Shown piece after piece: positions 8,745 through 64,000 of a stretch of 64,000 nucleotides of DNA. This DNA is from a virus. The stretch's first letter is position 1. Each line of letters opens with the position of its first letter. Where the stretch lies: positions 1 through 64,000 of IMG/VR virus record IMGVR_UViG_3300020185_000025; one strand, written 5' to 3'. The notes under the pieces are model-generated. The model saw nothing but the letters and a program-made list of their open reading frames with translations, was not told the origin of the DNA and searched no databases. The translations under genes and the position numbers were made by a program.

Positions 8745-8749
8745 TAGTT

Positions 8750-11232: not shown

Positions 11233-11259
11233 AATATAAAATAATTCCGTTCTGTAAAT

Positions 11260-11694: not shown

Positions 11695-12601
11695 ATCTAT
11701 TCTCCTCTTTTAATAATTCTTCAACAGCTTTTGCATACTGTGTATATAATGGTTCTTTATCAATTGGTAAGTAATGTATATATGCAGGAATCTTTTTAAG
11801 CTTCTTTACATCTTTCATTATTGTTGTCCATATACGAACATCACTACCAAATCTATCAGGTGCATAACCATTTTCATCAAGCCATTTATAATAGATGGCA
11901 TATATGTTTTGTTCTATGCACCAATACTTGCCACCCATACTTCTGTTGTTCTTTGCCGTACCATAAGCTGGTATGACTGAACCACCATAACCTTTTTTAT
12001 TCTTATACTTATATACACCATCCATGATAAGTATATATGTATCTTTACAAACTGCTCTTTGTAAGAACTCAAGATAATGTTCATTCTTACTATGTATTAC
12101 CTGTCCTGAGTTCATACTGAAATAAGGTTCTTTTCTCATGACTGATATATCAACTAAATCTTTATATAATGGAGATAAAGCTGACTCAACAAATTTACCC
12201 ATAACACCTAATGCAGATTCATTATAGAATACATACTCACTAAAGAAATAATGATCGAGCGGTTTAAGTAATAATACATCGTCGTCCATCATCATTGCTC
12301 TTTGGATATTAAGTACTTCATGTACATACGGAAAGACCAACCATTTAATTGCGACTCCGTATGAATCGAGAATCTTTAACAAATACTCTTCATCAAAGAA
12401 ATGCTTTGTTTTCTCAATCACATCAGTAGCATAATGTATATCAACTGAGTTTTCTATTGAATCTATATTATAAGTCGTTTTCCTATTATCTAGGATAACA
12501 TGTAAGCGTTGACATGTATCTTCTCCGTACACATTATAATACTTAAGAAGATTTTCAATTCTTTCAACTTTATTGCTTACTATGAATATGTCATTGTGCA
12601 T
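11684..12601 (-). CDS. Putative glycosyltransferase with DDD motif
   Basis: A 305-residue protein with a GT-A-like metal site in RAMMMDDDVLLLKPLD (DDD 106-108), then FSMNSGQVIHSKNEHYLEF and a C-terminal aromatic-rich region. No close family is recognised, but the motif and the neighbours (cytidylyltransferase and HAD-kinase) suggest transfer of a sugar or polyol-phosphate group. It overlaps both flanking genes by 11 bp. Confidence 0.6.
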   Translation of the reverse strand: MHNDIFIVSNKVERIENLLKYYNVYGEDTCQRLHVILDNRKTTYNIDSIENSVDIHYATDVIEKTKHFFDEEYLLKILDSYGVAIKWLVFPYVHEVLNIQRAMMMDDDVLLLKPLDHYFFSEYVFYNESALGVMGKFVESALSPLYKDLVDISVMRKEPYFSMNSGQVIHSKNEHYLEFLQRAVCKDTYILIMDGVYKYKNKKGYGGSVIPAYGTAKNNRSMGGKYWCIEQNIYAIYYKWLDENGYAPDRFGSDVRIWTTIMKDVKKLKKIPAYIHYLPIDKEPLYTQYAKAVEELLKEENRYVS

Positions 12602-13631
12602 AATTAATCATGTCCAGTAAATCGTTTACGCATTGAAGAATAAAGTCTTTATCAGGATGATACTTGTAAACTCTAATTACTTCAGCTGCGACTAAGGTAA
12701 GTAAATCGTATTTGTCTATCCAATGATTATATGCCAACAGTGTATTAATAGCCAGATCTTGTTCGGCCGTACTGTAATGATTAATCATCAGACTTGCTAT
12801 GAATTTTGCTATGTCAAGTTCACGACAGCCAAATACATTAGGAATAGGATCAATTAAGAACAATTTGTCTTCATTAAACAACATGTTCTTAACACCAAAA
12901 TCTCCATGACAATAACCGTATTCCAATTCGATTGTTGCCATCTTTTCAATTACTTCTTTAAATGGTTCAAGTTCTGCTAATTGAGCATGACTTGCTATTC
13001 TTGCGATATAATCATCAAAGGTTAGAAACTTATTTTGTTTAATAGTATCCAATCCATCAAGAGATTCTTGAATCATTGCCAAAGCTTTATAAGGATGATC
13101 TGAAAAATAGTTTGGATCGTTTTTAATATAATCCATTGTAAGTGTATCACCTACAACTCTGTGAATCGTTGGAGTATTAACAACAGAACCGGTTTCTTCA
13201 AACCACTTTGCGGCTTCATGAGCGTTTCTTGCCGTCTTATGTACTACATTGCCATCAGTATAGATATCAGAACCTGAGAGACCACCTTCTAGTTCTCTTA
13301 TATCAGTTTCTATAAAATCTTCAGGAGTAATACCTTTATCATCAACATAATATGCTGCAAGTGGTTTATCAAAAGACAGAGCATGATATTTTACATGATG
13401 TCTTTCTAACCAAGCTTCAATTTGTGGACCATACTTATTTGCTGCTTCGACTCTACTCCTACAAGAAATAGAACCACGAGCAGTAAAGATATCAACGATC
13501 CAACCAGAATCGTATAACTTATTACACTTTTCTATAAGGGCAAGATTTGGCTTTGCATTTTCCCAATCTCTGTTGGAGGTATATGCAAGCGTATCGTCAA
13601 AGTCGAGTACAATTCTTTTATGCATCGACAT
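12591..13631 (-). CDS. HAD phosphatase-kinase (APH/choline-kinase-like) fusion
   Basis: A 346-residue two-domain protein. Residues 1-110 are a HAD-type domain with DFDDT (10-14), a TARGS segment and YYVDDKG. Residues 115-346 resemble a small-molecule kinase of the aminoglycoside/choline kinase type: HGDFGVKN (242-249) is the catalytic loop and LIDP (259-262) carries the metal-binding Asp. Such proteins accompany cytidylyltransferases in capsule pathways. Here it would phosphorylate and dephosphorylate a small alcohol or sugar before CDP activation. It starts the tightly overlapped modification operon. Confidence 0.75.
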   Translation of the reverse strand: MSMHKRIVLDFDDTLAYTSNRDWENAKPNLALIEKCNKLYDSGWIVDIFTARGSISCRSRVEAANKYGPQIEAWLERHHVKYHALSFDKPLAAYYVDDKGITPEDFIETDIRELEGGLSGSDIYTDGNVVHKTARNAHEAAKWFEETGSVVNTPTIHRVVGDTLTMDYIKNDPNYFSDHPYKALAMIQESLDGLDTIKQNKFLTFDDYIARIASHAQLAELEPFKEVIEKMATIELEYGYCHGDFGVKNMLFNEDKLFLIDPIPNVFGCRELDIAKFIASLMINHYSTAEQDLAINTLLAYNHWIDKYDLLTLVAAEVIRVYKYHPDKDFILQCVNDLLDMINYAQ

Positions 13632-50565: not shown

Positions 50566-50573
50566 TATAAATA
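50566..50573 (+). promoter_or_regulatory. Late promoter for the 50.6-kb virion gene block
   Basis: Exact TATAAATA on the plus strand, 35 bp before orf50609. Confidence 0.75.
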
Positions 50574-50608: not shown

Positions 50609-52036
50609 ATGAAAGGCTTTAATACATTCATTACAGAAGCTAGTTTCTTAAAACCTGACTACGTTATAGGACATAAGATTGCTTATAACGGAAAAGGTTT
50701 TAAAGAACTCTCTGCGTTAGGCTACAATGCCGGCGATCATTTTGAAATCATATCTCCGACAAAGGCTGACTATACGTACGGAGATGGATCTGAAGAAAAA
50801 TATTTAAAAGCTCCTAATGGTAAGGTTATTCATATCAAAGGATCTACTTCTTTTAAATCAAGTTCCTTCACTCATGTGAAAGCTTCAGGATCTCCACCAA
50901 CTGGTGCTGAATGGGAAGATGTAATTGTTTATGCCTACAATAAACTCAATAATAAAACAACAGATCCAGAAACAATTGCCGTAGCAGAAAAGTTTAGTAA
51001 CTATATGGATGTTGCTGATAAAATCGCAAGTAACTTCAATAGTCAATTAAAAGCAAAACAATTAGTACAAACTGGTCGTGGTATGGGATCTATTAGTTTA
51101 GGACCTATATGGAAAGAAGTTGGTGCTAAGAATAAAACACCGAAGACCGATATTGCTTCCTCCGATTTCAAAGAAAAGATATCTTTAAAGAAAGCAGGCG
51201 GATCTCAACTTGCCTCACCAACCAAAGCAGAAGCTATCGCAATCGTTAAAGCCGCAATGGCAGAAATGGGCGAAGATAGAGGAATGGCAACTAAACTGGT
51301 TGAAACAATGGAAACAAATATGTCTTCTTTAGTTTCAAGGGTTGCTGCTGGTGAATTGCGAAAACAATCAAAGGCTGGTGTAAAAACTGATGCAGTGATT
51401 GACTTCCAAGCAAAGGATAAAGGGAATAGAGAATTAACTAAAATGCTCGAAGGCCTTATTAATCAAGATACAGCAGTTAACGCTTTATTTAGTAAACATA
51501 TTGTACTTGAAGCAGCAACTGGTAATCATAAATTTGGAAGCGCAGGTTCTCCTGCAGCGGCAAACCTTTTAGGTAAGTTTGATTTAAACGGCGGTATTGA
51601 AGTTCAATCCATTAGTAATATTAAAGATCCAATTATTATTAAATATGCACAAACTGTTAAGCCTGTCGTTTCGTTTAAATCAGGTGGCGGTGGTGCTCCT
51701 GCGTATTCAGCATTACGTTTAGGTATTAAAGAATCAGAAACATTAAGAGGTATTGTATTATCTGAAATGGAACAACTTGATGGCTTAATGTTAACAGAAG
51801 ACTTCCTATCAGAAGGTCCACTTGATATGCTAAAGAAAGCTGGTGATTGGGCAAGAGATAAAGGTACTGCTTTTGTAAATAAAGTTAAATCTGCCGTTTC
51901 TAAAGTTATTGCTAAAATAGGTGCAGTATTTAAAAAGATCGCAAAGATGGGTAAGAAAATGTTTGCTTCTTTAATGCAGTTTATGGGAGTCGAGATTAGA
52001 TCAGCATCAGGTATACCAGGAAGTATTTCTTTATGA
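50609..52036 (+). CDS. Probable virion protein with capsid-targeting-like leader
   Basis: A 475-residue protein whose first residues, MKGFNTFITEA, resemble the T4 capsid-targeting sequence MKTYQEFIAEA, with a gp21-type site (ITE/A). The body is Lys/Ala-rich with no recognised enzyme motif; the C-terminal 70 residues (ARDKGTAFVNKVKSAVSKVI) form a basic amphipathic helix region. A late promoter precedes it. It is probably packaged in the head and may bind DNA or membranes. Confidence 0.6.
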   Translation: MKGFNTFITEASFLKPDYVIGHKIAYNGKGFKELSALGYNAGDHFEIISPTKADYTYGDGSEEKYLKAPNGKVIHIKGSTSFKSSSFTHVKASGSPPTGAEWEDVIVYAYNKLNNKTTDPETIAVAEKFSNYMDVADKIASNFNSQLKAKQLVQTGRGMGSISLGPIWKEVGAKNKTPKTDIASSDFKEKISLKKAGGSQLASPTKAEAIAIVKAAMAEMGEDRGMATKLVETMETNMSSLVSRVAAGELRKQSKAGVKTDAVIDFQAKDKGNRELTKMLEGLINQDTAVNALFSKHIVLEAATGNHKFGSAGSPAAANLLGKFDLNGGIEVQSISNIKDPIIIKYAQTVKPVVSFKSGGGGAPAYSALRLGIKESETLRGIVLSEMEQLDGLMLTEDFLSEGPLDMLKKAGDWARDKGTAFVNKVKSAVSKVIAKIGAVFKKIAKMGKKMFASLMQFMGVEIRSASGIPGSISL

Positions 52037-52890
52037 AAAGTTTTAATGAGTTTAATGAAGGACCAAATGATCCTGCGATATTTAAAGCAATCTTTTTAGC
52101 AGGCGGTCCTGGTTCAGGTAAATCTTTTATTGTTGGTAAGACAGCATTACCTGCTCACGGATTTAAAGTTGTTAACTCAGATGATGCATTTGAAGTAGCA
52201 ATGAATAAAGCTGGTTTAACAATGGATGCTGATACTATCTTTTCAACTCAAGGACAAGAGATTCGCGATAAAGCAAAGAAAATAACAAGCGCAAGAATGA
52301 CTGGTTATTTACGTGGTCGTCTCGGTTTAGTTATTGATGGAACAGGTAAGAATGTAGCAAAGATACAAGGTCAAATAAAACAATTAAGATCTCTTGGTTA
52401 TGATGTTGGAATGATATACGTTAATACAGATTTAGATACTGCGATTAAGCGTAATGATATGAGACCAAGATCACTACCAGTTCAACAAGTTACTGCATTA
52501 TGGAAAGAAGTACAAAAGAACATCGGATCATTTAATAGTATGTTTGGTTCTAACTTTGTAGTAATTGATAATTCTGAAGGTGAAAACATTGATAAAGGAA
52601 TTATGGATGGATATAAGTGGGCAGGTAAATTTGCCAAATCTAATATCAACAATCCTAAAGCAAAGAAATGGATTAAACAATATTCAGAAGAACATTTAAA
52701 TATTAATGAAGCTGATTTATCAATGGATCGTGGTTCTATTATTGATATAATTCTTAAAGATGTAAAAGACAAGTTAATGAAGGATGTTATGAAGAACGAT
52801 CTTAGACTTCTTAAAGACATTGCATCAGAAGTAAAAAGAAAAGTAGAAATAGATTTTAAACATAAAGGTAGATTAAGGATTAAAACATAA
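52033..52890 (+). CDS. P-loop kinase (zeta-toxin/PNK-like) with capsid-targeting-like leader
   Basis: A 285-residue protein, leader MKSFNEFNEG, then Walker A FLAGGPGSGKSF (24-31 core) and VVNSDDAFEVAM, the typical opening of zeta-toxin-like and polynucleotide-kinase-like P-loop kinases. RMTGYLRGRLGLVIDGTGKN is the second nucleotide-binding segment, and RNDMRPRSLP a likely lid. The C-terminal 60 residues are basic and helical. Coupled to both neighbours. Substrate unknown. Confidence 0.8.
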   Translation: MKSFNEFNEGPNDPAIFKAIFLAGGPGSGKSFIVGKTALPAHGFKVVNSDDAFEVAMNKAGLTMDADTIFSTQGQEIRDKAKKITSARMTGYLRGRLGLVIDGTGKNVAKIQGQIKQLRSLGYDVGMIYVNTDLDTAIKRNDMRPRSLPVQQVTALWKEVQKNIGSFNSMFGSNFVVIDNSEGENIDKGIMDGYKWAGKFAKSNINNPKAKKWIKQYSEEHLNINEADLSMDRGSIIDIILKDVKDKLMKDVMKNDLRLLKDIASEVKRKVEIDFKHKGRLRIKT

Positions 52891-54122
52891 TGAAGAGTTA
52901 TAATCAATATCTTGCTGAGGCAGATGCCAATCTACATATGACGCATTTAGAAGATGCTGTTATTGACGGCGGTGTAAAAGGTACAAGAAACGTAATTAAC
53001 TATATTCGTAATATCCGAGATATGTTATCGGGTAATACACAAGCTCCTGTTAGTTTAACAACAAAATGGGATGGCGCGCCTGCGATCTTTGCTGGAGTTG
53101 ATCCTGCTGACGGCAAGTTCTTTGTGGCAAAGAAAGGAGTATTTAATAAGACTCCAAAATTATATAAAACAAATGCAGAAATAGATAATGATCTAAGCGG
53201 TGATCTTAATAGCAAATTTAAAGTTGCTTTAAAAGAATTTGCCAAGCTTGGAATTGAAGGAGTGGTACAAGGTGATTTCTTATATACGAACGACGATCTT
53301 AAAACGGAAAATATTGATGGAGAACCGTGTGTTACTTTCCATCCTAATACCATTGTTTACGCGGTACCTAAATCATCAGACCTCGGTAAGACAATTTCAG
53401 GATCCAAGATCGGTGTGGTCTGGCACACAACATACGGAGGATCAACTCTTCAAACAATGTCTGCAAGCTTTGGTCAGGCGATCTCAACAAAACTTAATAA
53501 AGTTAAAACGGTCTGGCACGTAGACGCAACATTCGAAGATAAGTCAGGTACAGCAACAATGACAAAGGCAGAGACTGATAATCTTACAGCCATGTTATCA
53601 AAGGCAGGATCATTGTTTAGAACAATAGATGCTAAGGTTCTAGGCGAACTCGGAACAAACGAAGATTTAAATGTAAAGGTAAATACTTTTATCAATACAA
53701 AGGTTCGTGCAGGAGAGCGTATTGGATCAGTCAAGCCATTCGTTGCGGATCTCCAACGATACATACAACAATATTACCAAAAGGAAGCAGATAAGCGTAA
53801 GACTCCTGCTGGTAAGAAAACGCAAATGGATAAAGCAGCTGCAGTATTACAAATTTTTGATAAAAGAAATACTAAAAAGCTTGAGGCCATATTTACGTTA
53901 TATGATTTGTTCGTTGATATGAAATATGTTATCATTGCGAAACTAAATACTGTTGACGGTATACGAACATTATTAAAAACAAAGAAAGGATTTGAAGTTA
54001 CAGGGCAAGAAGGATTTGTTGCTATTGATCATTATAGTTCGAACGCATTAAAAATTGTTGACCGCATGGGATTCAGTCTTGCTAACTTCTCAGACAAATA
54101 CATTAAAGGGTGGCAAAAATAA
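52890..54122 (+). CDS. Ligase-like nucleotidyltransferase with capsid-targeting-like leader
   Basis: A 410-residue protein, leader MKSYNQYLAEA (LAE/A site). TTKWDGAPAIFAG (57-69) has the KxDG motif of covalent nucleotidyltransferases (DNA/RNA ligases, capping enzymes), with Lys59 as candidate nucleophile. IEGVVQGDFLY and KIGVVWHTTYGG follow and may be further motifs. Similar proteins in cyanophages are named only as a DUF. Ligase activity is inference. It overlaps its neighbours as TAATG. Confidence 0.7.
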   Translation: MKSYNQYLAEADANLHMTHLEDAVIDGGVKGTRNVINYIRNIRDMLSGNTQAPVSLTTKWDGAPAIFAGVDPADGKFFVAKKGVFNKTPKLYKTNAEIDNDLSGDLNSKFKVALKEFAKLGIEGVVQGDFLYTNDDLKTENIDGEPCVTFHPNTIVYAVPKSSDLGKTISGSKIGVVWHTTYGGSTLQTMSASFGQAISTKLNKVKTVWHVDATFEDKSGTATMTKAETDNLTAMLSKAGSLFRTIDAKVLGELGTNEDLNVKVNTFINTKVRAGERIGSVKPFVADLQRYIQQYYQKEADKRKTPAGKKTQMDKAAAVLQIFDKRNTKKLEAIFTLYDLFVDMKYVIIAKLNTVDGIRTLLKTKKGFEVTGQEGFVAIDHYSSNALKIVDRMGFSLANFSDKYIKGWQK

Positions 54123-54367
54123 TGGCATTCGTAACAGTACCAGGAAGTAATGGAACATGGGAATATGAAAATACAGCAACCGCTACTGATACCTATGTTG
54201 ACTCTCCAGGAACGGTCTCCGCGGGTGTTAGAACATTTACAGTACCTAATTCAGGCGGTTACACAACTCAAACTTATATTAAATGCAGGAAGCCAGGAAA
54301 AACTCTGGTAAATGGTGAAATTAATAAGGACTTTTACGACTATAGATTTAGTCAAGGAACACCGTAG
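54122..54367 (+). CDS. Small conserved virion-type protein
   Basis: An 81-residue protein beginning MAFVTVPGSNGTWEYENTAT and containing TYIKCRKPGKTLVNGE. The pattern recurs in marine T4-like phages next to structural genes. ATG 54122 overlaps the upstream stop. Function unknown. Confidence 0.65.
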   Translation: MAFVTVPGSNGTWEYENTATATDTYVDSPGTVSAGVRTFTVPNSGGYTTQTYIKCRKPGKTLVNGEINKDFYDYRFSQGTP

Positions 54368-54389
54368 ATTTAGTTAAGGAATACGAAGA

Positions 54390-55196
54390 ATGGCAATTTG
54401 GAACAAAAATAATCAAGCATACTTACAAGATAATAAAACTTTATTTGAAGCATTTATGTTATCAGATAAAGATGGTAATATTATCAATACGTTTGGCGAG
54501 GCATCTAATATTCCTTTAGCAGCCGGAGAACTAGACGGTTACTCTGCGGTACATAAGTTTGGCATCATTGATGGAACTATTGGAACAGGCTGGTCAACTA
54601 TTTGGGCGCAAGGCGAAAATATTGGAGATCAATTAGCACCTTGGAGAGAAATTGGTGATGCCGGCGTTGTTACTGTTACTTCATCCCTTGCTGGTGATAC
54701 AACTGATGTTACGCTTGAAGGATTAGATGCCGATTATAACTTTCAATCAGAAACATTGACTTTGGCTGGTACTGCTGATGTTGTAGGAACTAAAACTTGG
54801 CATCGTATTAATCGTATGTTTATGGTAACAGAGACAAACGTTGGTAATGTTACTGCAACGATCGGTGCTGATATTGTAAGTTCTATTAAAGCAGGTCGTG
54901 GCCAAACGTTACAAGCTTTTTATACAGTCCCTGCTGGTAAAACTGCTTACCTAACTCATATGCAAGTATCTTCTAGTAAGAACCAAGCTGTTGAAGCATC
55001 ACTCTTTGTAAGACCGTTTGGCGGAGCATTTAGAGTTACTGGTGGTACTATGCTATACCAAATGGAACACACAATCCATTACTCTTCTCCTATTCGAATT
55101 ACTGAAAAGAGTGATATGGACTTTAGAGCTATTGGTGCAGCAAACGGTGTTTTATCAGCATCGTTTGATTTAATATTAGTTGACAACCCTGCCTAA
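54390..55196 (+). CDS. Conserved virion structural protein
   Basis: A 268-residue beta-rich protein with AGVVTVTSSLAGDTTDVTLE, GQTLQAFYTVPAGKTAYLTH and SLFVRPFGGAFRV. Related structural proteins are widespread in marine myoviruses, likely decorating the head or tail. Its last codons carry the promoter for the next operon. Confidence 0.65.
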   Translation: MAIWNKNNQAYLQDNKTLFEAFMLSDKDGNIINTFGEASNIPLAAGELDGYSAVHKFGIIDGTIGTGWSTIWAQGENIGDQLAPWREIGDAGVVTVTSSLAGDTTDVTLEGLDADYNFQSETLTLAGTADVVGTKTWHRINRMFMVTETNVGNVTATIGADIVSSIKAGRGQTLQAFYTVPAGKTAYLTHMQVSSSKNQAVEASLFVRPFGGAFRVTGGTMLYQMEHTIHYSSPIRITEKSDMDFRAIGAANGVLSASFDLILVDNPA

Positions 55197-55208
55197 ATAT
55201 GATATAAT
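55180..55208 (+). promoter_or_regulatory. Early promoter for the kinase/glycan cassette
   Basis: TTGACA, 17 bp, TATAAT on the plus strand, overlapping the stop of the structural gene upstream. Confidence 0.75.
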
Positions 55209-55241
55209 ATAAATTCTATAATATGAATAAGGTGATCCTCA

Positions 55242-55775
55242 ATGAAAGATGTAACAGTCATAAACTTCTACGGCGGGCCGGGGTCAGGTAAATCTACCGC
55301 TGCTGCCGGTTTGTTCTATCAAATGAAAATCGCAGGCTATAACGTCGAACTGACGGATGAGTTTGCTAAAGAGTGCGTATGGGAAGGTAACATACCAATG
55401 TTGGCAGATCAACTTTGGGTACTCGGTCATCAACACAGAAAGATATTACGATTGTCCGATAAGGTAGATTATATTATTACCGATAGTCCTGTACTCTTAA
55501 GTCCAATATATCGTGAGAGATATGGTGAAGCAATCTATTCAGATCTAATTGACAAAATGGCTTTTGAGTGTTACTGTTTATATAATCATAATATTAACTT
55601 TATGCTAACAAGACCTGATGATTTTGAACAAAACGGTAGAGCACAAGATCTAAAAGAATGTAAAGAAATTGATGATGCAATTATAGAACAGTTTGACCGA
55701 CTTAACATCGGATATATAAATTTAGACTCTAATGATAACGCAGCTGCAGCAATGAGATATATTAAAAGATTATGA
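55242..55775 (+). CDS. P-loop kinase/ATPase (NadR/Ttd14-like AAA)
   Basis: A 177-residue protein with Walker A GGPGSGKST (11-19), VELTDEFAKECVWEG and DYIITDSPVLLSPIYRERYG. These fit the AAA_28 group with NadR-like kinases. A LTRPDDFEQNGRAQDLKE segment may be the lid. It overlaps the next gene by 4 bp and begins an operon of sugar genes. Substrate unknown. Confidence 0.75.
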   Translation: MKDVTVINFYGGPGSGKSTAAAGLFYQMKIAGYNVELTDEFAKECVWEGNIPMLADQLWVLGHQHRKILRLSDKVDYIITDSPVLLSPIYRERYGEAIYSDLIDKMAFECYCLYNHNINFMLTRPDDFEQNGRAQDLKECKEIDDAIIEQFDRLNIGYINLDSNDNAAAAMRYIKRL

Positions 55776-56446
55776 ATATTGAAAAGAAGATGACACATAT
55801 ATGGATAGGACCAAATCCTGCTCCATTGAAGTGGATGAATACTTGGCAAGAAAAGATGCCTGACTGGGAATACAGCGTGTTCACAGATGACATGTTACAT
55901 AAGCGTAAATGGTACAATCAACATTTAATTGAAGAGTACTACAGAAGAGGTACATGGGCAGGAGTTGCTGATTTAATTCGTTATGAGTTAATATATGAAA
56001 AAGGTGGCTTTTGGCCTGAAGCAGATTCAGAATGTTATCATAGAGTAGACGAACTATTTGTTGAAGATCCAAATCTTGCATATACTGTATTTGAAAAAGA
56101 AGATGTAATACCAAGATCTATATCTCCAATCATGGCAGCAAACCCAGGCAATAAATTTCTCGATGTTATATTAAGAAAGCTCCATACACTCAGACCAAAT
56201 CAATTAGATCTAAAGCCTCATGAATCAACAGGAAACTTTTTCCTAGCAAGATTGTTAGATGATACACGACATATGTTACATATCTTTCCATCTTATATGT
56301 TTATACCACAATGGTTTCGCCCAGGTTATCCAAGGTATAATGGACCAGGTAAAATATACGCAGAACAACATTGGGGTTCAACTGCTCTCGACCAAGCTCC
56401 TTCAATGTCAGGAACAACAAAACAATATTCACAAGGTATAGAATGA
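55772..56446 (+). CDS. Glycosyltransferase with sugar-binding DXD region (GT32-like)
   Basis: A 224-residue protein with MTHIWIGPNPAPLKWMNTWQ, then GVADLIRYELIYEKGGFWPE followed by ADSE in the place of DxD, as in OCH1/capsular GT32 enzymes. It would transfer a sugar in a glycan pathway. Coupled by ATGA overlaps to both neighbours. Confidence 0.75.
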   Translation: MNIEKKMTHIWIGPNPAPLKWMNTWQEKMPDWEYSVFTDDMLHKRKWYNQHLIEEYYRRGTWAGVADLIRYELIYEKGGFWPEADSECYHRVDELFVEDPNLAYTVFEKEDVIPRSISPIMAANPGNKFLDVILRKLHTLRPNQLDLKPHESTGNFFLARLLDDTRHMLHIFPSYMFIPQWFRPGYPRYNGPGKIYAEQHWGSTALDQAPSMSGTTKQYSQGIE

Positions 56447-57117
56447 GACACGTAGAAATATTAGGTCTAGGACATCCAAGAACAGGCACAGGATATACAA
56501 GTAAAGTATTATCTGATTGGGGTTTAGATGTTGGCCACGAAACATCAGGCAAGATGGGAATTGTATCTTGGTTATTAGTTAAACCTAAAGGTCCATATAT
56601 GTGGCAGAGTGGATTTGATAGAAGACCAACATACAATCATTTAGTTTATAACGTAAGAGATCCAAAAACTGCTCTTGCTTCTATTACTTATACTGAATCA
56701 CCACCATGTGATAGAGATGGTTATAGTTGGGATGGGACTCAATTTTATACTGAATACGAAAGAGTAGTAAAAAACTTTAATTACGATTCTACTTATTTTA
56801 GAAAACAATTCATCGGATTAAATAATAATAACCCAGTAGAAAACGCAATTGATAGTATATGCCAGTTTCATGATATGATAATGAATTGTAGACCAAATAT
56901 TAAATATAGAATTGAGGATGAAGAAGAAAAGTTATTTGAGTATATGAAAATACAGTATCCTCATATTGAATTTACACCACATCCAAAGGCAGAGAATACT
57001 CGAGTTCATAAATCGTTTGAAGATATGTGCAGAGAGTTTCCAACACCTTCGTTAAAACATCAACAAAGAATTAACGAATACGCAGAAATAAACAAGTACG
57101 AAAAGGTAGTATTTTGA
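56443..57117 (+). CDS. Sulfotransferase-like P-loop protein
   Basis: A 224-residue protein with ILGLGHPRTGTGYTSKVL, the 5'-phosphosulfate-binding loop of sulfotransferases, and YNVRDPKTALASI as the 3'-phosphate-binding motif. I start at ATG 56443, which overlaps the previous stop as ATGA; the frame extends 24 codons further up. It may sulfate a sugar made by the flanking glycosyltransferases. Confidence 0.75.
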   Translation: MRHVEILGLGHPRTGTGYTSKVLSDWGLDVGHETSGKMGIVSWLLVKPKGPYMWQSGFDRRPTYNHLVYNVRDPKTALASITYTESPPCDRDGYSWDGTQFYTEYERVVKNFNYDSTYFRKQFIGLNNNNPVENAIDSICQFHDMIMNCRPNIKYRIEDEEEKLFEYMKIQYPHIEFTPHPKAENTRVHKSFEDMCREFPTPSLKHQQRINEYAEINKYEKVVF

Positions 57118-57803
57118 AAGCTTATATATTAACACACGATCATCCAATATCACGCAAGTATGCAAAGATGTGTTCTCAAACTTGTGATGCAATAGATTTG
57201 GATTGGGAATACTTTGAAGGTTGGTCTAATTGTACTGGTCGTATGGCTTGGTGCCAAACTGGTATTAAGATGAAGTTTTACGAACCAATGCTACACGTTG
57301 ATTTTCCAACACCTGAACATAAAGCAAATACTTGTTCCGCAGGTCATGCCGCTATTTGGAAAAAGATTGCTGAAGGAGACGATGAAGTTGGTATTGTATT
57401 AGAACATGATGCATTAATGTATTATAAACCAGATATAAAAGTACCTGATAATTATTTAATTACATTAGGATATAAAGTTACTGACCCAGAAAACTATCGA
57501 GCGTTTGATGCAAGAGATAATGAACCAAGACAATTAATTAATATAAATGGACATGAAGGTGCCCATGCTTATATGATGACAAAAAGAACAGCCCAGAATC
57601 TTATTTACGAAATAGAACAAAGAGGTGTAATGGGATGTGTTGATAATGCATACTTTATTTTAAATCAAAGATGTACACAAATTCCATTAGCAATTATGTC
57701 GCCTACACCAGCAATAGGATATTTAAGAGATTCTACGATTTGGGATAAGTCTGCACATGTTAACTATGAATTTATTGAGACCTTTGCTAAATATTATAAA
57801 TAA
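57114..57803 (+). CDS. Glycosyltransferase family 25-like
   Basis: A 229-residue protein with MKAYILTHDHPISRKYAKMC at the start and AGHAAIWKKIAEGDDEVGIV then LEHDA, the GT25 LPS-glycosyltransferase pattern; GHEGAHAYMMTKRTAQNLI follows. It starts with TTG overlapping the previous stop (TTGA), AAGG upstream. Last gene of the cassette; its stop codon lies inside a late promoter. Confidence 0.75.
   Translation: MKAYILTHDHPISRKYAKMCSQTCDAIDLDWEYFEGWSNCTGRMAWCQTGIKMKFYEPMLHVDFPTPEHKANTCSAGHAAIWKKIAEGDDEVGIVLEHDALMYYKPDIKVPDNYLITLGYKVTDPENYRAFDARDNEPRQLININGHEGAHAYMMTKRTAQNLIYEIEQRGVMGCVDNAYFILNQRCTQIPLAIMSPTPAIGYLRDSTIWDKSAHVNYEFIETFAKYYK
57795..57802 (+). promoter_or_regulatory. Late promoter for orf57837
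   Basis: Exact TATAAATA on the plus strand, overlapping the stop codon of the GT25-like gene, 34 bp before the next start. Confidence 0.7.
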
Positions 57804-57836
57804 AAACATTAGCAAATTAAAAATAGGAATATTTAG

Positions 57837-59618
57837 ATGGATCGCTTAAACGAAAAAGATAAAGAGACTTCCGTAGCGCAAGATTCTGTCGATGATAACG
57901 CAAATCACGACAAAATAAATGACGCGGACAATAAAGATATTAAGAAGCGTAAAGATAAAAAGAAGGACCAGGATACTGGTAAAGGCATTATTAAAAAGAA
58001 TAGCAAGACAAGCTTTGACGCTAATAAATTTATTGATACGGAACCTACAATAGCGGAAGCTGTTCAGAACAAAGCGGTTATTACTTTTGGTAGAATGAAT
58101 CCTCCAACAGTCGGTCATGAAAAATTAGTTAATAAAATAATCTCAACAGCAATCTCTGAAAAAGGTACTCCTTTAGTATACCTATCAAAAACTCAAGATG
58201 CAAAAAAGAATCCTTTAACATACGAACAAAAACTCAAATATGCTCAAACATTCTTTGGAAAAAGATTAGTTGTTAAATCAAATGCTAAAACAATTATTCA
58301 AGTTGCTCAAGAATTACAAAAGGCAGGATTTAAGGATCTTGTTCTCGTTGTTGGTTCAGATAGAATAAGAGAATTTGAAACACTATTGAACAGATACAAC
58401 GGAAAGGATTATACGTTTAATTCTATTAAGGTTGTTTCCGCAGGAGAACGTGATCCTGACTCTGATGATGTTTCAGGAATGTCAGCAAGTAAAATAAGAG
58501 CTGCTGCTGCAGAAGGTAATCTTGATTTATTTAAAAAAGGTATACCAACAAGAAACGACAGATTAATATTAGACTTATTTAATGACGTTCGTAAAGGTTT
58601 AGGTATTTCTGAATCATTAAATTTTGCGGTACTACAATTCCTCGGCGAAAGAGTTAAGGATGGTAAAGTAGATCCTTTATCACCAATGGGGAAGCAAAAA
58701 CTAACTGGCGCTGAAGTTGCTCAATATTATAAGAACAATCCTAAAGCAAAGTCTGCGGCAAATCGAGATAAGAATGTTAAGCTTGGTATTGAACTTGCTT
58801 TAGATTTAGCAGGTAATATGAATTACGCAGTTAAAGAAATTGATAAACTCAAAAGAAACCTTTCCAAACATCCTGAAATTCAAAAAGCTTTAAAAACCGC
58901 AAACGAATCACATAACGTTGATTTATATCGCGCTGCTTCTATTCAAGAAAGACTACAACAAGAAGCTGATAAAGAATCAAAACAACAAAAGCAACAGCCC
59001 GGTTATTATAAAGATCTAGGTAATTCAACAAAAGATAAAAGACAAGCTCACTTTAATAAAAAGACAAAGATGGATGATGACAATCCAAAAGCCTATGAGC
59101 CTGCGCCTGGTGATGCTGAAGCTAAAACAAAACCATCTAAACATTCAAACAAGTTTAAGAAAATGTTTGGTGAAGCCGTTAACCGTAATATGGAACGTGC
59201 AGGTTTAAAAAGACCACATCAATTATTAAGACAAGATAATACTGTTAATTTTGATTATAGATTTAAAATGTATGGCAAAGCAAAAGAACTTGAAGCTGTA
59301 GCAAAACAAAGAGCAGATGTTGAATCTGAAATAACAGAACAAAGAATTGAAGAATTATACGATCTGATAGAACAAGTAGAATTCGTAAGCGAGAAATCAA
59401 ACCCTGAAAAATCATTAAAGGATAAAGCAGAAAAATCTGGAATGCCTTATGGAATATTGAAGAAAGTGTTTGATCGTGGAGTTGCTGCTTGGAGAACAGG
59501 GCATAGACCTGGTACAACTCCAGTACAATGGGGATTAGCAAGAGTAAACAGTTTTGCTACAAAATCACCAGGTACTTGGGGTAAGGCTGATAAAGATTTG
59601 GCTGATAAAGTTAAATAA
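57837..59618 (+). CDS. Nucleotidyltransferase (NMNAT-like) fused to long virion-type C-terminus
   Basis: A 593-residue protein. Residues 1-60 are a charged, disordered head. After EPTIAEAVQNKA (an IAE/A processing-like site, 72-75), VITFGRMNPPTVGHEK has the HxGH-type motif (85-94) and SGMSASKIRAAAA the second signature, giving a nicotinamide-nucleotide adenylyltransferase-like domain to about residue 260. The remaining 330 residues are helical and Lys-rich, unlike NMNAT. An AGGAATAT site and a late promoter precede it, so a virion protein is likely. Confidence 0.75.
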   Translation: MDRLNEKDKETSVAQDSVDDNANHDKINDADNKDIKKRKDKKKDQDTGKGIIKKNSKTSFDANKFIDTEPTIAEAVQNKAVITFGRMNPPTVGHEKLVNKIISTAISEKGTPLVYLSKTQDAKKNPLTYEQKLKYAQTFFGKRLVVKSNAKTIIQVAQELQKAGFKDLVLVVGSDRIREFETLLNRYNGKDYTFNSIKVVSAGERDPDSDDVSGMSASKIRAAAAEGNLDLFKKGIPTRNDRLILDLFNDVRKGLGISESLNFAVLQFLGERVKDGKVDPLSPMGKQKLTGAEVAQYYKNNPKAKSAANRDKNVKLGIELALDLAGNMNYAVKEIDKLKRNLSKHPEIQKALKTANESHNVDLYRAASIQERLQQEADKESKQQKQQPGYYKDLGNSTKDKRQAHFNKKTKMDDDNPKAYEPAPGDAEAKTKPSKHSNKFKKMFGEAVNRNMERAGLKRPHQLLRQDNTVNFDYRFKMYGKAKELEAVAKQRADVESEITEQRIEELYDLIEQVEFVSEKSNPEKSLKDKAEKSGMPYGILKKVFDRGVAAWRTGHRPGTTPVQWGLARVNSFATKSPGTWGKADKDLADKVK

Positions 59619-59788
59619 TGGATCGTATAAATAATATAAAGGAAGAAGGCGGTGCTGGAGATTGGGGAACCGATAAAGCAAGAGCCAAACTTCAAACAGA
59701 CACCCCTTACCAAAAAGTTAAGAGGGAAAACAAATTAAAGACTTTCAAACAATTTAATAAGGACCAGGTAACCAATGAAAAAGTTTAG
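59618..59788 (+). CDS. Small conserved protein with EEGGAGDWGT motif
   Basis: A 56-residue protein, KEEGGAGDWGTDKARAKLQT then DTPYQKV, a pattern seen in short proteins of marine T4-like phages. It begins at the preceding stop codon (TAATG) and overlaps orf59775 by 14 bp. A TATAAATA site lies in its first codons. Function unknown. Confidence 0.55.
   Translation: MDRINNIKEEGGAGDWGTDKARAKLQTDTPYQKVKRENKLKTFKQFNKDQVTNEKV
59626..59633 (+). promoter_or_regulatory. Possible late promoter upstream of orf59775
   Basis: Exact TATAAATA inside the first codons of the small gene, about 140 bp before orf59775. Confidence 0.45.
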
Positions 59789-60788
59789 ACAGGTATTAGA
59801 AAGCGTTGATCCAATCAGCGAGAATATTAATAAATCAAGCAAAGAGCTTGGGAAAGAAATCAATGATGCTGCAAGAAAAGAAACTGGCGGTGATAAAAGG
59901 GATTTCATGAATGTGTCTAAACTCATTTCACAAGGCAAGCATAAAGATGCTGCTAAGTATATGTCTAAATTAGATACAGCAGTTCTTGAAGATCTTGTTA
60001 CTTTTATCATGGGTCATGAAGATGTATTTAAAGTAATGTATCCTAAAGCTCGTCCTGGTCAGCCGGTTGCTTTATTTGCTCGAGAAGAAACTGAAATTGT
60101 TGAGGCAATGTCAGAAAAAGATAAAGCAAAACGTTTAGCATTAATTAAGAAAGCAGTTGAGAGAATCAATAAAGGTAATGCAGAGAAGGCAAAGAAAGAT
60201 GCACTTGCTATGATGAAGGCCTCAGGTATGTTTGATGAAGATCTTGACGAATCAACAATTAATGAAGTATCAACGCCAAACAGTTTAGAACAAGCAATTG
60301 AGATTGAAGTTGATTTAGGTGTAACATTTGATAAAGGTACTTTAACCAGATCTGACGCTGAAGAGTTAAAAAGAGACTGGGCTGTTTACAGACAAGAAAT
60401 AGCAAAGGTTGTTAAGCCATTAGGTGGTTTAGTAACAGATACAATTGCTCCTAATCCAAGAATGACCAACACAAAAGGACAAAGACTTGGTACTGTTTCT
60501 ATAGGTACTCGTGGTGATGCAAGTAAACTTGACGCGAAAAAAATCAAAGCAGTATTAAGTAGAAGTGTTGATGTTGCAGATATGAAGATTACCAATCTAA
60601 ACGAAGAATCAGATCTTCAAGAAAAGATTACTTTCTACGGTTCTGTAATTGGTGGATTGAGAGATAAACAGTATACCTATCAAGCGGTAGCAGTTGACTA
60701 CAAAGGTAAGTTAGGATATAAGATAACAAATCAACATGGAGATTTTGAAACACTCACTCTCCAGCAATTCGCAAAGAGGTTCGGATAA
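59775..60788 (+). CDS. Putative virion protein with targeting-like leader, paralogue of orf60788
   Basis: A 337-residue protein, leader MKKFRQVLESVD (VLE/S). Residues 30-95 (KETGGDKRDFMNVSKLISQG, then HEDVFKVMYPKA) repeat in orf60788. The central part is helical and Lys-rich; the C-terminal VVKPLGGLVTDTIAPNPRMT section is beta-rich. No enzyme motif. It is in the late gene block. Confidence 0.6.
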   Translation: MKKFRQVLESVDPISENINKSSKELGKEINDAARKETGGDKRDFMNVSKLISQGKHKDAAKYMSKLDTAVLEDLVTFIMGHEDVFKVMYPKARPGQPVALFAREETEIVEAMSEKDKAKRLALIKKAVERINKGNAEKAKKDALAMMKASGMFDEDLDESTINEVSTPNSLEQAIEIEVDLGVTFDKGTLTRSDAEELKRDWAVYRQEIAKVVKPLGGLVTDTIAPNPRMTNTKGQRLGTVSIGTRGDASKLDAKKIKAVLSRSVDVADMKITNLNEESDLQEKITFYGSVIGGLRDKQYTYQAVAVDYKGKLGYKITNQHGDFETLTLQQFAKRFG

Positions 60789-61393
60789 TGACATATATTT
60801 TTGAAGAATTGCATAAAATAAGATTGAAAGAAAACTATGCTCAGGACTTAGACCTTGCACAGAAGAATATGGCCAGGTTATCTCAGAAAGAAACAGGTCA
60901 AGATAAGAAAGATTATCAATCAGTAGCTCGAGCTCTTAATCAAGGCAATCTCGGTGCAGTTAAGAAAGTAATCAAAGGTATTAGTACCGATGAGATTAGA
61001 GCAGATATTCTAAATGTACTTGTAGGTTATAATGACCTTATTGCTAAAATGTATCCTAAAGCAGTAGATTCTAAGGGTAGACTTAAAACTCCTATGAACG
61101 TAAGTAAGATGATTAAAGAAGATGAAGAAATCATTGAAGAAGAAACAGATTTTGATGAACTTGCAGAGTTGGTTGAAAACATTCAAAAGGTAATTAAGTT
61201 ATTCCCAGGTGATAACGATTGGAAGAAACTAATAACTAAACACCGTAGAGATATTGATGCTTTAAGAAGAGGCAAAGATTTACCTCAAAAGGTACAAGAC
61301 GAGTTAATGAGTTGGGCAATGGATAACGGTGAAATTAAGACTGATGATGTCGATGAGCTCGACGATTTCATAATGACAATTATTGACGCGTAG
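60788..61393 (+). CDS. Helical protein, paralogue of orf59775 N-terminal domain
   Basis: A 201-residue protein. KETGQDKKDYQSVARALNQG and YNDLIAKMYPKAVDSKG align with the upstream gene, so the two arose by duplication. The rest is acidic and helical. The start overlaps the previous stop (TAATG). Function unknown. Confidence 0.6.
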   Translation: MTYIFEELHKIRLKENYAQDLDLAQKNMARLSQKETGQDKKDYQSVARALNQGNLGAVKKVIKGISTDEIRADILNVLVGYNDLIAKMYPKAVDSKGRLKTPMNVSKMIKEDEEIIEEETDFDELAELVENIQKVIKLFPGDNDWKKLITKHRRDIDALRRGKDLPQKVQDELMSWAMDNGEIKTDDVDELDDFIMTIIDA

Positions 61394-61403
61394 GTAAGGT
61401 ATA

Positions 61404-61940
61404 ATGAAATCCTTCAAACAATTTTTAGAAGCAGACGGTTGTTGGACTGGCTACAAAAAAGTAGGCATGAAAAAGAAAGGCGACAAGATGGTTCCTAATT
61501 GCGTACCTGAAGAAAACGAGATTGAAGAACTTACAACCTCGCAGGCTATTAAAAAGATTGCCGCAGATACTATATTCAAAAAGAAATATGGTCGAGGTGT
61601 TGAACTCGTAAAACAAATTATGTATAAACACGGTCCAAAGCCAAGACACGGAAAAGAATATTATGCAGGTAAGATTGCGAATCAGTTAGGATTAGATTCA
61701 CATGTACTTGCACTTATGGTTGATGAACAATTATCAGAAGGTTCCGAATCGTGGGAAGACGGGTTTGAGCGCAGAGTTGTTAAAACAACAAAACCAGAAC
61801 ACAAGAAAGATGGCTATGAATGGCGCATTAAAGGCAAAGACAAAGCTAATCTATCAATTAAATTATATAAAACAAAACCAGACTTTGCAGAATTTAAAAA
61901 ACAAATGAAGCGAGTCGCGGGACACGAATTCGGAGGATAA
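61404..61940 (+). CDS. Virion-type protein with targeting-like leader and DGCWTGY motif
   Basis: A 178-residue protein: leader MKSFKQFLEADG (FLE/A), then CWTGYKKVGMKKKGDKMVPN followed by CVPE, a short motif often found near phage virion proteins. The remainder is basic and helical. Function unknown; capsid targeting is inferred from the leader. Confidence 0.6.
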   Translation: MKSFKQFLEADGCWTGYKKVGMKKKGDKMVPNCVPEENEIEELTTSQAIKKIAADTIFKKKYGRGVELVKQIMYKHGPKPRHGKEYYAGKIANQLGLDSHVLALMVDEQLSEGSESWEDGFERRVVKTTKPEHKKDGYEWRIKGKDKANLSIKLYKTKPDFAEFKKQMKRVAGHEFGG

Positions 61941-61941
61941 A

Positions 61942-62364
61942 GTGGATACAATAACCAAAAAAGCTATCGATGCAAGAACTCGAGAGTTTAAAGAAAAATT
62001 AGCGAAACTAACATATGAAAAAATTAAGCAAGTCTTGGTACCTTCTCCTACTCCTCTTAAAGGCTATCCTGCCAACGAAGAAGTGACAATTAGTGTGGAC
62101 GAATCTGTATTGTCTGAAGCGTTGAGACTTAAAAGTCCAAGCAAAACAACTACAGTTGATATTGACTATATTGGAAGTTCATCTGATATTAACCAATCGC
62201 AAAGAGAATACAATATTAAAATCAAAAAGACAGGTCGTCAAATGGCTGACATTACTGGTAAGAAAGGCGACATTGTTAAGTTCTTACAAGGCGATGCATA
62301 TGCAATGGACGACGAAGATATCAAAGATATCTTTCCAGAACTACTCGAATTACACTCGAAGTAG
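61942..62364 (+). CDS. Hypothetical protein (GTG start)
   Basis: A 140-residue protein starting GTG, 1 bp after the previous stop, with GAGGATAA just upstream. A helical N-terminus (KKAIDARTREFKEKLAKLTY) precedes a beta-rich part (TTTVDIDYIGSSSDINQSQR). Function unknown. Confidence 0.6.
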   Translation: MDTITKKAIDARTREFKEKLAKLTYEKIKQVLVPSPTPLKGYPANEEVTISVDESVLSEALRLKSPSKTTTVDIDYIGSSSDINQSQREYNIKIKKTGRQMADITGKKGDIVKFLQGDAYAMDDEDIKDIFPELLELHSK

Positions 62365-62393
62365 TTGACATTCAGCCACAAAGTTGATATAAT
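62365..62393 (+). promoter_or_regulatory. Early promoter directly before the RimK-like gene
   Basis: TTGACA, 17 bp, TATAAT on the plus strand. The ATG begins 5 bp after the -10 box, so the transcript would be leaderless. Confidence 0.75.
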
Positions 62394-62398
62394 AAATT

Positions 62399-63850
62399 AT
62401 GAAATCCATATCTGAATACAGAAATCACCAGTTACTAGAGGAAGAGACGGAAGTTCTTTCTTATGATGAACTGCACATTGTTGTATTAGGTACAGGAGAT
62501 GGTGACGGCACCTTTGCTGATATTGTTGAAGAAGTGTCAACTAAAAGAAATATCAAGTACGATTTTGTTGATGTATCTAAGGCATGGATTGCTGGTTCTG
62601 ATATTGAGATTGGAAGTGTAAAGCTTCGTAATGTTGATGGTAAGGATAAAGATATTGAAATTGAGACTTATAACTCAATTGTATTTGTAAGAGCAGGAGC
62701 AATTGGTACGCTTACTTCACAGGCGTTTGTTTCTTCCTTACAGGATATTGGTTTCTTACTTGTAAACGATTTAGAGTCAATGTTAGTTTGCGATAACAAA
62801 ATGTCCAACGCATTATTGTTAGGTCGTAATAATATACCGATTCCAAGAACCTCATCTATTCCAAACGAACATTCTATTGAAGACGCTCATAAACGAGTTG
62901 GTGGAAAGTTCCCAGTTATTGCTAAAACATTGAAAGGTACACAAGGTGTTGGTGTAATGAAGGTTGACAGTATGTCATCTCTAACAGGTGTATGTCAATC
63001 ATTATGGAAATATGAAGCTGATTTGCTAATTCAAGAATTCTTTGAAATGCAATCAGACATTCGTACTTTAGTTGTAGGTGGTAAAATACTTGCTGCAGCT
63101 GAAAGAATACAGGCACCAGATAATAAAGACTTTAGAAACAATGTACACCAAGGCGCAACAACCGAACCTTATAAATTAAATAAGAAAGAGATAGCAGTAA
63201 TTAAAGCTGCAGCGCGAGCAACAGGAGCTGTATATTGTGGAGTAGATCATTTTGTTGATAAGAAAGGCAATCCTTATATTATCGAAGTAAATGGTTCTCC
63301 AGGTATTCGTTCTCATTTTGAAGGATATGATCCTTGGACTGAAGAACCTAAAGGTAAAGTTTCTGATAAAAATGTAGTAGAGAGTATTATATCATTCTTT
63401 ACTAAGGATGTCAATAGAAGACCAATCTTTAGACAAGAAGCTGGATATATTGAAACAATTATATTTAAAGGTATGGAAAAGAATCCTGTCCGTGCAAAGT
63501 TTGATTCAGGTAATAGTGCAAAAGCAAGTATGTTACATGTTGATAAAATGGAAGTAAAAGGCAAGAAGGTATTTTGGGAAAAGAACGGATATAAGTTTGA
63601 AGATGAGTTATTGTATGTCTCAAAACCAATGCGTGGCCAAAAGCCATTTGATGAAAGACCTGTAATCGAACATGAAATAACTTTTAATAATAAAAAACAT
63701 ATTGCTGAGATTGCTTTATCATTAAAAGATACAGCATCAGAGATGTTAGTGAATCGTAAACTAATGACAAAGTTTAAGATTGCTGTAAATCCTAATAGAC
63801 GGTTTATATTATCAAATAAAACGGCAAAGAACGACGAATCGGATCACTAA
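62399..63850 (+). CDS. RimK-like ATP-grasp ligase fused to RimB-like aspartic protease domain
   Basis: A 483-residue two-domain protein. Leader MKSISEYRNHQLLEEE resembles the targeting leaders nearby. Residues 20-330 are a RimK-type ATP-grasp ligase: FVRAGAIGTLTSQAFV, GKFPVIAKTLKGTQGVGVMK, LLIQEFFEMQSDIRTLVVG and YIIEVNGSPGIRSHFEGYD. From about 345 a retropepsin-like RimB/Zn_protease-type domain follows: AKFDSGNSAKASML (DSG in place of DTG), then DERPVIEHEITFNN and MLVNRKLMTKFKIAVNP. In bacteria RimK adds glutamate to ribosomal protein S6 and RimB partners it. The target here is unknown. Confidence 0.85.
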   Translation: MKSISEYRNHQLLEEETEVLSYDELHIVVLGTGDGDGTFADIVEEVSTKRNIKYDFVDVSKAWIAGSDIEIGSVKLRNVDGKDKDIEIETYNSIVFVRAGAIGTLTSQAFVSSLQDIGFLLVNDLESMLVCDNKMSNALLLGRNNIPIPRTSSIPNEHSIEDAHKRVGGKFPVIAKTLKGTQGVGVMKVDSMSSLTGVCQSLWKYEADLLIQEFFEMQSDIRTLVVGGKILAAAERIQAPDNKDFRNNVHQGATTEPYKLNKKEIAVIKAAARATGAVYCGVDHFVDKKGNPYIIEVNGSPGIRSHFEGYDPWTEEPKGKVSDKNVVESIISFFTKDVNRRPIFRQEAGYIETIIFKGMEKNPVRAKFDSGNSAKASMLHVDKMEVKGKKVFWEKNGYKFEDELLYVSKPMRGQKPFDERPVIEHEITFNNKKHIAEIALSLKDTASEMLVNRKLMTKFKIAVNPNRRFILSNKTAKNDESDH

Positions 63851-64000
63851 TGAAAAAATTTACAGATTGGAAATACGAAGGTTTTGGATTATATGAAGGA
63901 GTCACAGTTCCTTTAGAAACACCAATGATTGAATTGGATGTATCAGAAGAACCAGAACTAAATTCACCAAAACGCTCAGGCGGAGATAAAAAGTATGTTG
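63850..64000 (+). CDS. Conserved virion-type protein (3' end outside window)
   Basis: The first 50 residues: MKKFTDWKYEGFGLYEGVTV, then PLETPMIELDVSEEPELNSP and KRSGGDKKYV. The leader resembles the others in this block. Proteins with the YEGVTVPLETPM pattern are conserved in marine T4-like phages. The start overlaps the RimK stop (TAATG). Confidence 0.6.
   Translation, partial: MKKFTDWKYEGFGLYEGVTVPLETPMIELDVSEEPELNSPKRSGGDKKYV

What the first reader, a model, noticed from the sequence alone, without database searches (positions are those of the whole stretch)
50609..64000. A battery of enzymes with capsid-targeting-like leaders: candidate injected effectors
At least six genes begin MKSF/MKSY/MKKF..(F/Y/V)L.E (orf50609, 52033, 52890, 59775, 61404, 62399), and orf63850 is similar. 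T4 internal proteins carry MKTYQEFIAEA, removed by gp21 protease after (L/I)xE. The bodies include a P-loop kinase, a KxDG ligase-like protein and a RimK-RimB fusion. They may be packaged in the head and injected with the DNA to reprogram the host at once.
Basis: partly seen in the sequence, partly recalled or inferred. Interest (0 to 1): 0.85.

Follow-up and report, generated by a model that had tools for sequence, protein, structure and literature searches.

The report
T4-type head-targeting leaders on phage enzymes
A marine T4-like phage puts the same short N-terminal tag that phage T4 uses to load proteins into its head onto several unrelated enzymes, and published particle analyses of related phages find tagged enzymes of this sort in their particles, so the phage probably carries ready-made enzymes into the cell with its DNA.

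Summary
Two genes have the full T4-type leader (orf50609 MKGFNTFITE|A, orf52890 MKSYNQYLAE|A). Three are near-canonical (52033, 59775, 61404) and two are weak (62399, 63850). A tight leader pattern occurs 5 times on the contig against 0.04 in shuffled N-termini. The leader matches T4 IPII/IPIII (MKTYQEFIAE|A) at the residues known to matter: aromatic 4 and 7 for targeting, aliphatic 8 and E10 for gp21 cleavage. A matrix trained only on this family ranks IPII and IPIII first among 146 T4 ORFs. Applied to three cyanophages with published virion mass spectrometry, its top hits are the cytidylyltransferases, with a kinase and a SAM hydrolase close behind, all detected in virions. Each phage's own capsid-protein site has the same core (FLAE|A, LLTE|A, ILTE|A). 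In IMG/VR the leader heads at least 25 unrelated protein families (at least 120 hits against 1 for the reversed pattern), often behind T4-type late promoters. DUF6267 homologues lacking the leader were not detected. Packaging is therefore well supported; cleavage and injection of the window's own proteins are inferred. Capsid-targeting sequences are known from T-even phages; a leader-tagged enzyme set in marine T4-like phages is a new variant.

The parts
50566..50573 (+). T4-type late promoter TATAAATA, 36 nt before orf50609
   Evidence: Eight such octamers in the window equals chance (8.66 expected), so this is suggestive only by position.
50609..50641 (+). canonical leader MKGFNTFITE|A of orf50609
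   Evidence: score 24.6; M1, F4, E10, A11 invariant in 12 homologues
50609..52036 (+). orf50609, 475 aa, no Pfam/PHROG match; invariant TPKTD..(x)..ISLK motif resembling a PD-(D/E)XK nuclease (inferred); 29% identical to HTVC008M gp126
51806..52033 (+). candidate C-terminal gp21 site L(S/N/C/A)E|GP(L/F)DM followed by a basic amphipathic tail in orf50609 (compare the C-terminal processing of T4 Alt)
   Evidence: cleavage inferred
52033..52890 (+). P-loop kinase / zeta-toxin-like protein; leader MKSFNEFNEG (E at 9), homologues MKDFKTFVDE|G and MRKYKDFVNE|G are canonical
52890..52922 (+). canonical leader MKSYNQYLAE|A
   Evidence: score 22.7; E10 invariant in 23 homologues
52890..54122 (+). DUF6267 protein with invariant KWDG (ligase/nucleotidyltransferase-like motif)
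   Evidence: fold search gave no match
54390..55196 (+). homologue of MS-detected virion proteins S-CREM2 gp176 (42%) and S-SCSM1 gp31 (35%)
57837..59618 (+). NMNAT/cytidylyltransferase-like protein; homologous to virion-detected S-CREM2 gp154, S-SCSM1 gp91 and S-SZBM1_140
58011..58061 (+). internal leader-like segment SFDANKFIDTEPTIAE|A just before the catalytic domain; (I/L)xE|A kept in 8 of 8 homologues that have this extension
   Evidence: function inferred
59775..60788 (+). orf59775, leader MKKFRQVLES; homologues MKKFRQVLEG, MKNFRQVLEG; paralogous to orf60788
60788..61393 (+). orf60788, paralogue of 59775; own N-terminus MTYIFEELHKIRLKE is not a clear leader, a homologue (L014) has MKSFRESLAEV
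61404..61940 (+). orf61404, leader MKSFKQFLEA plus CWTGYKKVGMKKKGDKMVPNC module; the module also occurs in virion-detected S-SZBM1_139, with similar motifs in S-CREM2 gp160 and S-SCSM1 gp29
62399..63850 (+). RimK ATP-grasp ligase fused to a RimB-like domain; weak leader MKSISEYR....LLEEE
63850..64000 (+). start of orf63850 (MKKFTDWKYEGFGLYEG..., 125 aa, continues beyond the window); weak leader

Best explanation
The region is a late, virion-associated gene block of a marine T4-like (Kyanoviridae/HTVC008M/DLP6-related) phage. Several unrelated enzymes in it carry a short N-terminal capsid-targeting sequence of the T4 internal-protein type. The aromatic residues at 4 and 7 should dock the protein to the prohead scaffold core. 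The prohead protease gp21 should then cut after the (L/I/V)xE at about residue 10, leaving the enzyme free inside the head. It would be ejected with the DNA at the next infection and act on nucleotides, RNA/DNA ends or proteins before phage genes are expressed. Shown: the leader, its modular use, its match to T4 residues and to relatives' capsid-protein sites, late-promoter association in relatives, and published virion detection of leader-bearing relatives. Inferred: packaging of this phage's own proteins, cleavage, injection and the effect on the host.
For: (1) Leader conservation is concentrated at M1, F4, E10 and A11 in orf50609 homologues. Insertions in the leader preserve (L/I)xE|A in front of the body. 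(2) A matrix from this family ranks T4 IPII and IPIII first and second of 146 T4 ORFs; residues 4, 7, 8 and 10 are the ones mapped by IPIII mutagenesis (PMC9026906). (3) On S-CREM2, S-SCSM1 and S-SZBM1 the top three matrix scores are the three cytidylyltransferases, and an APH kinase and a SAM hydrolase follow within the top eight, all five virion-detected (Fisher P 0.008; strict leaders 6 of 9 detected against about 17% of the rest, P 0.0016). (4) Major capsid protein prosegments show the same scissile core: FLAE|A, LLTE|A, ILTE|A. (5) IMG/VR: at least 120 hits against 1 for the reversed pattern; 81 of 81 start an ORF; at least 25 unrelated bodies and late-promoter enrichment of 35/79 against 145/666, P 4e-5. 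(6) DUF6267 homologues without a leader are undetected in all three virion proteomes. (7) Window 57837, 54390 and 61404 are related to virion-detected proteins.
Against: No proteomics exist for this phage. gp21 is absent from the 89-kb fragment and no gp23 was seen on it, so site matching uses relatives. Three leaders have E at 9, not 10, and two are weak. Virion preparations can be contaminated: RegA is listed for S-SCSM1, and the authors themselves raise this. Three strict leader proteins (S-SCSM1 gp30, S-SZBM1_191 and _192) were not detected. Over all proteins, matrix score does not separate virion from non-virion proteins, because most virion proteins are shell or tail. DUF6267, the P-loop kinase and the orf50609 family have no direct virion evidence.
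Confidence: 0.77

Rival explanations
1. The leader targets the proteins to the prohead core, but they work in head assembly or DNA packaging (scaffold, core or repair roles) and are not delivered as effectors.
For: T4 IPIII has an assembly role as well (PMC9026906). The genes lie beside virion structural homologues (54390, 65084). Small basic bodies exist among leader proteins.
Against: Many bodies are enzymes acting on small molecules or macromolecules (cytidylyltransferase, SAM hydrolase, APH kinase, zeta-like kinase, HAD, glucosaminidase) and vary between phages, as expected of host-directed cargo.
Confidence: 0.15
2. The shared N-terminus is an unrelated docking helix or a conserved start of one gene family; resemblance to T4 internal proteins is chance, and virion detection is contamination by abundant proteins.
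For: Short motif; some window members are degenerate; the proteomics authors raise contamination.
Against: Bodies are unrelated. The reversed pattern occurs once against at least 120. T4 IPII/IPIII rank first with a matrix not trained on them. Non-virion enzymes without leaders (nrdA, DNA polymerase, DUF6267) are not detected in the same preparations.
Confidence: 0.06
3. The leader is only a protease-sensitive tag, so that proteins caught in the prohead are trimmed or removed; it is not for delivery.
For: gp21 digests core proteins such as gp22 and gp67 to fragments (PMC9026906).
Against: Enzymes are identified in virions with many peptides (S-CREM2 gp14 21 unique peptides, gp6 19). The residues kept include the targeting aromatics, not only the cleavage site.
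Confidence: 0.04

Closest known systems
T4 internal proteins IPI, IPII, IPIII and their capsid-targeting sequence
   Same: 10-residue MKxF/YxxF(I/L)xE|A leader, residues 4/7/8/10, E|A scissile bond, unrelated bodies behind one leader
   Different: T4 IPs are small anti-restriction or basic proteins of T-even phages; here the leader is on large enzymes in marine T4-like lineages, in a different genomic site (between gp41 helicase and primase)
T4 Alt (injected ADP-ribosyltransferase)
   Same: a packaged enzyme processed by gp21, also at its C-terminus; orf50609 has a comparable conserved C-terminal site
   Different: Alt has a 7-residue propeptide and a different enzymatic domain
Virion-associated NMNAT/cytidylyltransferase, APH kinase and SAM hydrolase of cyanophages S-CREM2, S-SCSM1, S-SZBM1
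   Same: homologous or equivalent cargo, with leader and MS detection
   Different: the authors did not describe a leader in the passages read and left contamination open
MuF/portal-fused and polyvalent head-packaged effectors (Iyer, Burroughs, Aravind)
   Same: diverse enzymes predicted to be packaged and injected
   Different: those use fusion to structural domains or gene context; here a short, probably cleavable leader

Membership tests
T4-type capsid-targeting sequence (internal-protein class) | N-terminal 10-19 residue leader with aromatic residues at 4 and 7 | tested here: met
   50609, 52890, 52033 and 61404 fit; 59775 has F4 and V7; 62399 does not
T4-type capsid-targeting sequence (internal-protein class) | gp21 site (L/I)xE with E at 10 or preserved after an insertion | tested here: met
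   met for 50609 and 52890 and for homologues of 52033; 59775, 61404 and 52033 itself have E at 9
T4-type capsid-targeting sequence (internal-protein class) | one leader on bodies that share nothing else | tested here: met
   at least 25 body clusters after removing the first 12 residues
T4-type capsid-targeting sequence (internal-protein class) | cognate gp21-type protease and a matching capsid-protein site in the same phage | tested here: inconclusive
   absent from the 89-kb fragment; present in relative G001 (PF03420 1.2e-39) and in HTVC008M, S-CREM2, S-SCSM1, S-SZBM1 with matching gp23 sites
T4-type capsid-targeting sequence (internal-protein class) | protein present in virions | tested here: inconclusive
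   published MS positive for leader-bearing relatives; none for this phage; DUF6267, the kinase and orf50609 families with leader have no MS data
T4-type capsid-targeting sequence (internal-protein class) | leader removed after E in the mature head | not testable with these tools
   needs N-terminal peptides from virions
T4-type capsid-targeting sequence (internal-protein class) | ejected into the host with DNA | not testable with these tools
   analogy with T4 only (PMC9026906, PMC12373910)
T4-type capsid-targeting sequence (internal-protein class) | late (TATAAATA-type) expression | tested here: met
   leader genes in IMG/VR 35/79 against 145/666 other ORFs; TATAAATA before S-CREM2 gp154, gp6 and gp15 and at window 50566 (window total equals chance)
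PD-(D/E)XK nuclease (orf50609) | fold and catalytic D...(D/E)xK | tested here: inconclusive
   invariant TPKTD...ISLK, but the model is poor (pLDDT 51) and no profile match
nucleotidyl-transfer ligase (DUF6267, orf52890) | KxDG motif within a ligase fold | tested here: inconclusive
   K59-W-D-G62 invariant in 23 sequences; model pLDDT 76, no PDB fold match at E<0.3

The most novel reading that the evidence does not exclude
Marine T4-like phages use one short capsid-targeting leader as a general export tag, loading a variable set of enzymes (cytidylyltransferase/NMNAT, kinases, SAM hydrolase, a Cas9-like nuclease, ligase- and glutamate-ligase-like proteins, dozens of others) into heads for injection, so the leader itself is a search key for an unrecognised injected effector repertoire of abundant ocean phages.
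Probability: 0.62. Interest if true: 0.88.

Novelty: new variant of a known kind. Interest (0 to 1): 0.74.

Why it matters
Capsid-targeting leaders are textbook for T-even phages, where they carry small anti-restriction proteins. Here the same signal marks many large enzymes across marine T4-like phages and gives a sequence rule for why enzymes keep turning up in cyanophage virion proteomes, a point their authors left open. It turns many 'hypothetical proteins' into testable candidates for effectors that act before phage transcription starts, and offers a possible delivery tag for cyanobacteria and other marine hosts.

Tried and rejected
Megablast against phage records: no match. tblastn of 50609 and 61404 against phages: none. 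Structure of orf50609 unusable (pLDDT 51); DUF6267 model moderate but no fold match; profile searches of solved structures gave nothing meaningful. S-CBWM1, cited for a virion NMNAT, is not a classical T4-like phage by its taxonomy and gene content and was dropped. Mann-Whitney over all proteins of three phages was not significant and is reported. A general C-terminal motif shared by all leader proteins was sought and not found; it is essentially confined to the orf50609 family. Chance, one-family conservation and contamination were considered and judged unlikely (see rivals).
Full report
What the sequence is. The window is the first 64,000 bases of an 88,997-base viral contig. Gene order and homology place it with T4-like marine phages: the block follows uvsX and the gp41-type helicase, as in Stenotrophomonas phage DLP6, Pelagibacter phage HTVC008M and cyanophage S-SZBM1, and a primase homologue follows (69746). 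The contig is a fragment; no gp21 protease is on it, but a 143-kb relative that carries the same DUF6267 gene has one and has gp23 beside it.

Checking the observation. All seven ORFs exist. Two leaders are canonical by the T4 rule (MKGFNTFITE|A, MKSYNQYLAE|A). Three keep the aromatic part but have the glutamate one residue early (52033, 59775, 61404). 62399 and 63850 are weak. A tight pattern is found five times on the contig against 0.037 expected from shuffled N-termini; the pattern was written after seeing the leaders, so independent tests follow. In 12 homologues of orf50609 the invariant leader residues are M1, F4, E10 and A11. Homologues of 52033 have the canonical form (MKDFKTFVDE|G, MRKYKDFVNE|G), and several homologues of 50609 carry insertions between the aromatics and the glutamate yet keep (L/I)xE|A just before the body (FASINE|A, FANLAE|A, FKSLSE|A). 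T4 IPI has the same stretched form (MKTFKEFTSTTTPVSTITE|A).

Does it behave as a T4 capsid-targeting sequence? In T4 the first ten residues of IPIII suffice; residues 4 and 7 target, 8 and 10 are needed for processing, and gp21 cuts after (L/I)xE (PMC9026906). A position matrix built from 32 leader cores of the window and its IMG/VR relatives, with no T4 sequence in it, ranks IPII and IPIII first and second among 146 T4 ORFs.

Virion evidence from relatives. Three T4-like cyanophages have published virion mass spectrometry: S-CREM2 (PMC10665884, Table 3), S-SCSM1 (PMC9602691 and its GenBank notes) and S-SZBM1 (PMC9146016, Table 1). The same matrix gives its best scores there to S-CREM2 gp154 (MKNFSSFLTEADE), S-SZBM1_140 (MRFRQFIIEAVAA) and S-SCSM1 gp91 (MKSFLQFLKEAAE), which are all NMNAT/cytidylyltransferase-like and all in virions; S-CREM2 gp14 (APH kinase) and gp6 (SAM hydrolase), also in virions, follow within the top eight (Fisher P 0.008 counting every possible start). 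With strict leaders the count is 6 of 9 detected against about 124 of 710 others (P 0.0016; totals approximate and the definition post hoc). In S-CREM2 the virion-detected Cas9-like protein (gp12) has RFASFMAEA near its start, and gp13, gp15 and gp136 have leader-like starts. The three strict leader proteins not detected are small (165 aa or less). DUF6267 homologues in these three phages lack the leader and are not detected. The major capsid proteins of the same phages have the same core at their expected prosegment site: SFLAE|A, GLLTE|A, ILTE|A; HTVC008M has AFLGE|I.

How general it is. Of 81 hits in the 80 loci listed, all begin an ORF and 79 are at least 60 aa. With the first 12 residues removed, the bodies fall into at least 25 unrelated clusters, including P-loop kinases, a HAD-type hydrolase, a glucosaminidase and many unknowns. 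ATAAATA, the core of the T4-type late promoter, lies within 100 nt upstream of 35 of 79 leader genes against 145 of 666 other ORFs in the same loci (P 4e-5). TATAAATA precedes S-CREM2 gp154, gp6 and gp15, and lies 36 nt before orf50609, although TATAAATA in the window as a whole is not above chance.

The window genes in this light. orf57837 (cytidylyltransferase-like) starts without a leader, but just before its catalytic domain it has SFDANKFIDTEPTIAE|A; the (I/L)xE|A is kept in eight of eight homologues with this extension, and in other phages the leader abuts the catalytic domain directly. orf54390 is 42% identical to virion protein S-CREM2 gp176, and orf61404 shares a CW..GY....VPNC module with virion protein S-SZBM1_139. 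orf50609 also has a conserved LxE|GP(L/F)DM followed by a basic amphipathic tail, a possible second gp21 site like that reported for Alt.

Mechanism. Most likely: late synthesis; docking of the leader to the scaffold core; gp21 cleavage after the glutamate; release inside the head; ejection with the DNA. The first steps rest on the sequence and on relatives' virion data. Cleavage, ejection and effect on the host are inferred from T4. The bodies suggest nucleotide/NAD metabolism, nucleic-acid end joining and protein glutamylation, but functions are predictions; structure prediction did not settle the folds of 50609 or DUF6267.

Known or new. T-even phages carry many internal proteins recognised by this signal, and Ip1-3 block GmrSD restriction enzymes (PMC12373910). 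Head-packaged effectors in general have been proposed from domain fusions and gene context (PMC9503650). In the library searched, no paper holds the leader strings of this family, and none was found that ties cyanophage virion enzymes to a capsid-targeting sequence; subscription papers were not searched. This is therefore a new variant of a known kind, and specific enough to test on existing mass-spectrometry data.

Noticed in passing
L094 (S-SCSM1) gp97; L088 (S-CREM2) gp160: Two virion-detected proteins copy the N-arm of their own major capsid protein (GGFTGSSAAEGPTAGYDPLM against gp23 DGFQGGSADAGPTAGFDPVL; GFTGAAAPEGPVAGYDPLM against GFTGAAAPGGPNAGFDPVM): a possible second, capsid-mimic incorporation signal.
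   Followed up: partly
L089 (S-CREM2) 7704-13331: A likely late operon encodes a Cas9/Csn1-like protein, an APH-like kinase and two small proteins, each with a leader-like N-terminus; all four are MS-detected in virions.
   Followed up: partly
window 50609-52036, C-terminus: Conserved LxE|GP(L/F)DM followed by a basic amphipathic tail; HTVC008M gp126 has LLHE|GVLD at the same place.
   Followed up: partly
window 61404-61940; S-SZBM1_139, S-CREM2 gp160, S-SCSM1 gp29: A mobile CWxGY..G.K.K.GK.VPNC module recurs in different virion or leader proteins; role unknown.
   Followed up: no
L001 5084-5380 (contig 65084-65380): MALWGKTD... protein matches virion-detected S-SZBM1_136 (35%); S-SCSM1 gp95 and HTVC008M gp135 begin in the same way.
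   Followed up: partly
IMG/VR loci among L109-L188 (for example L117, L137, L187): Many leader-bearing cytidylyltransferases carry a small DGHGGWYD(..)GEFVAKT segment between leader and catalytic domain; S-SCSM1 gp91 has it too.
   Followed up: no
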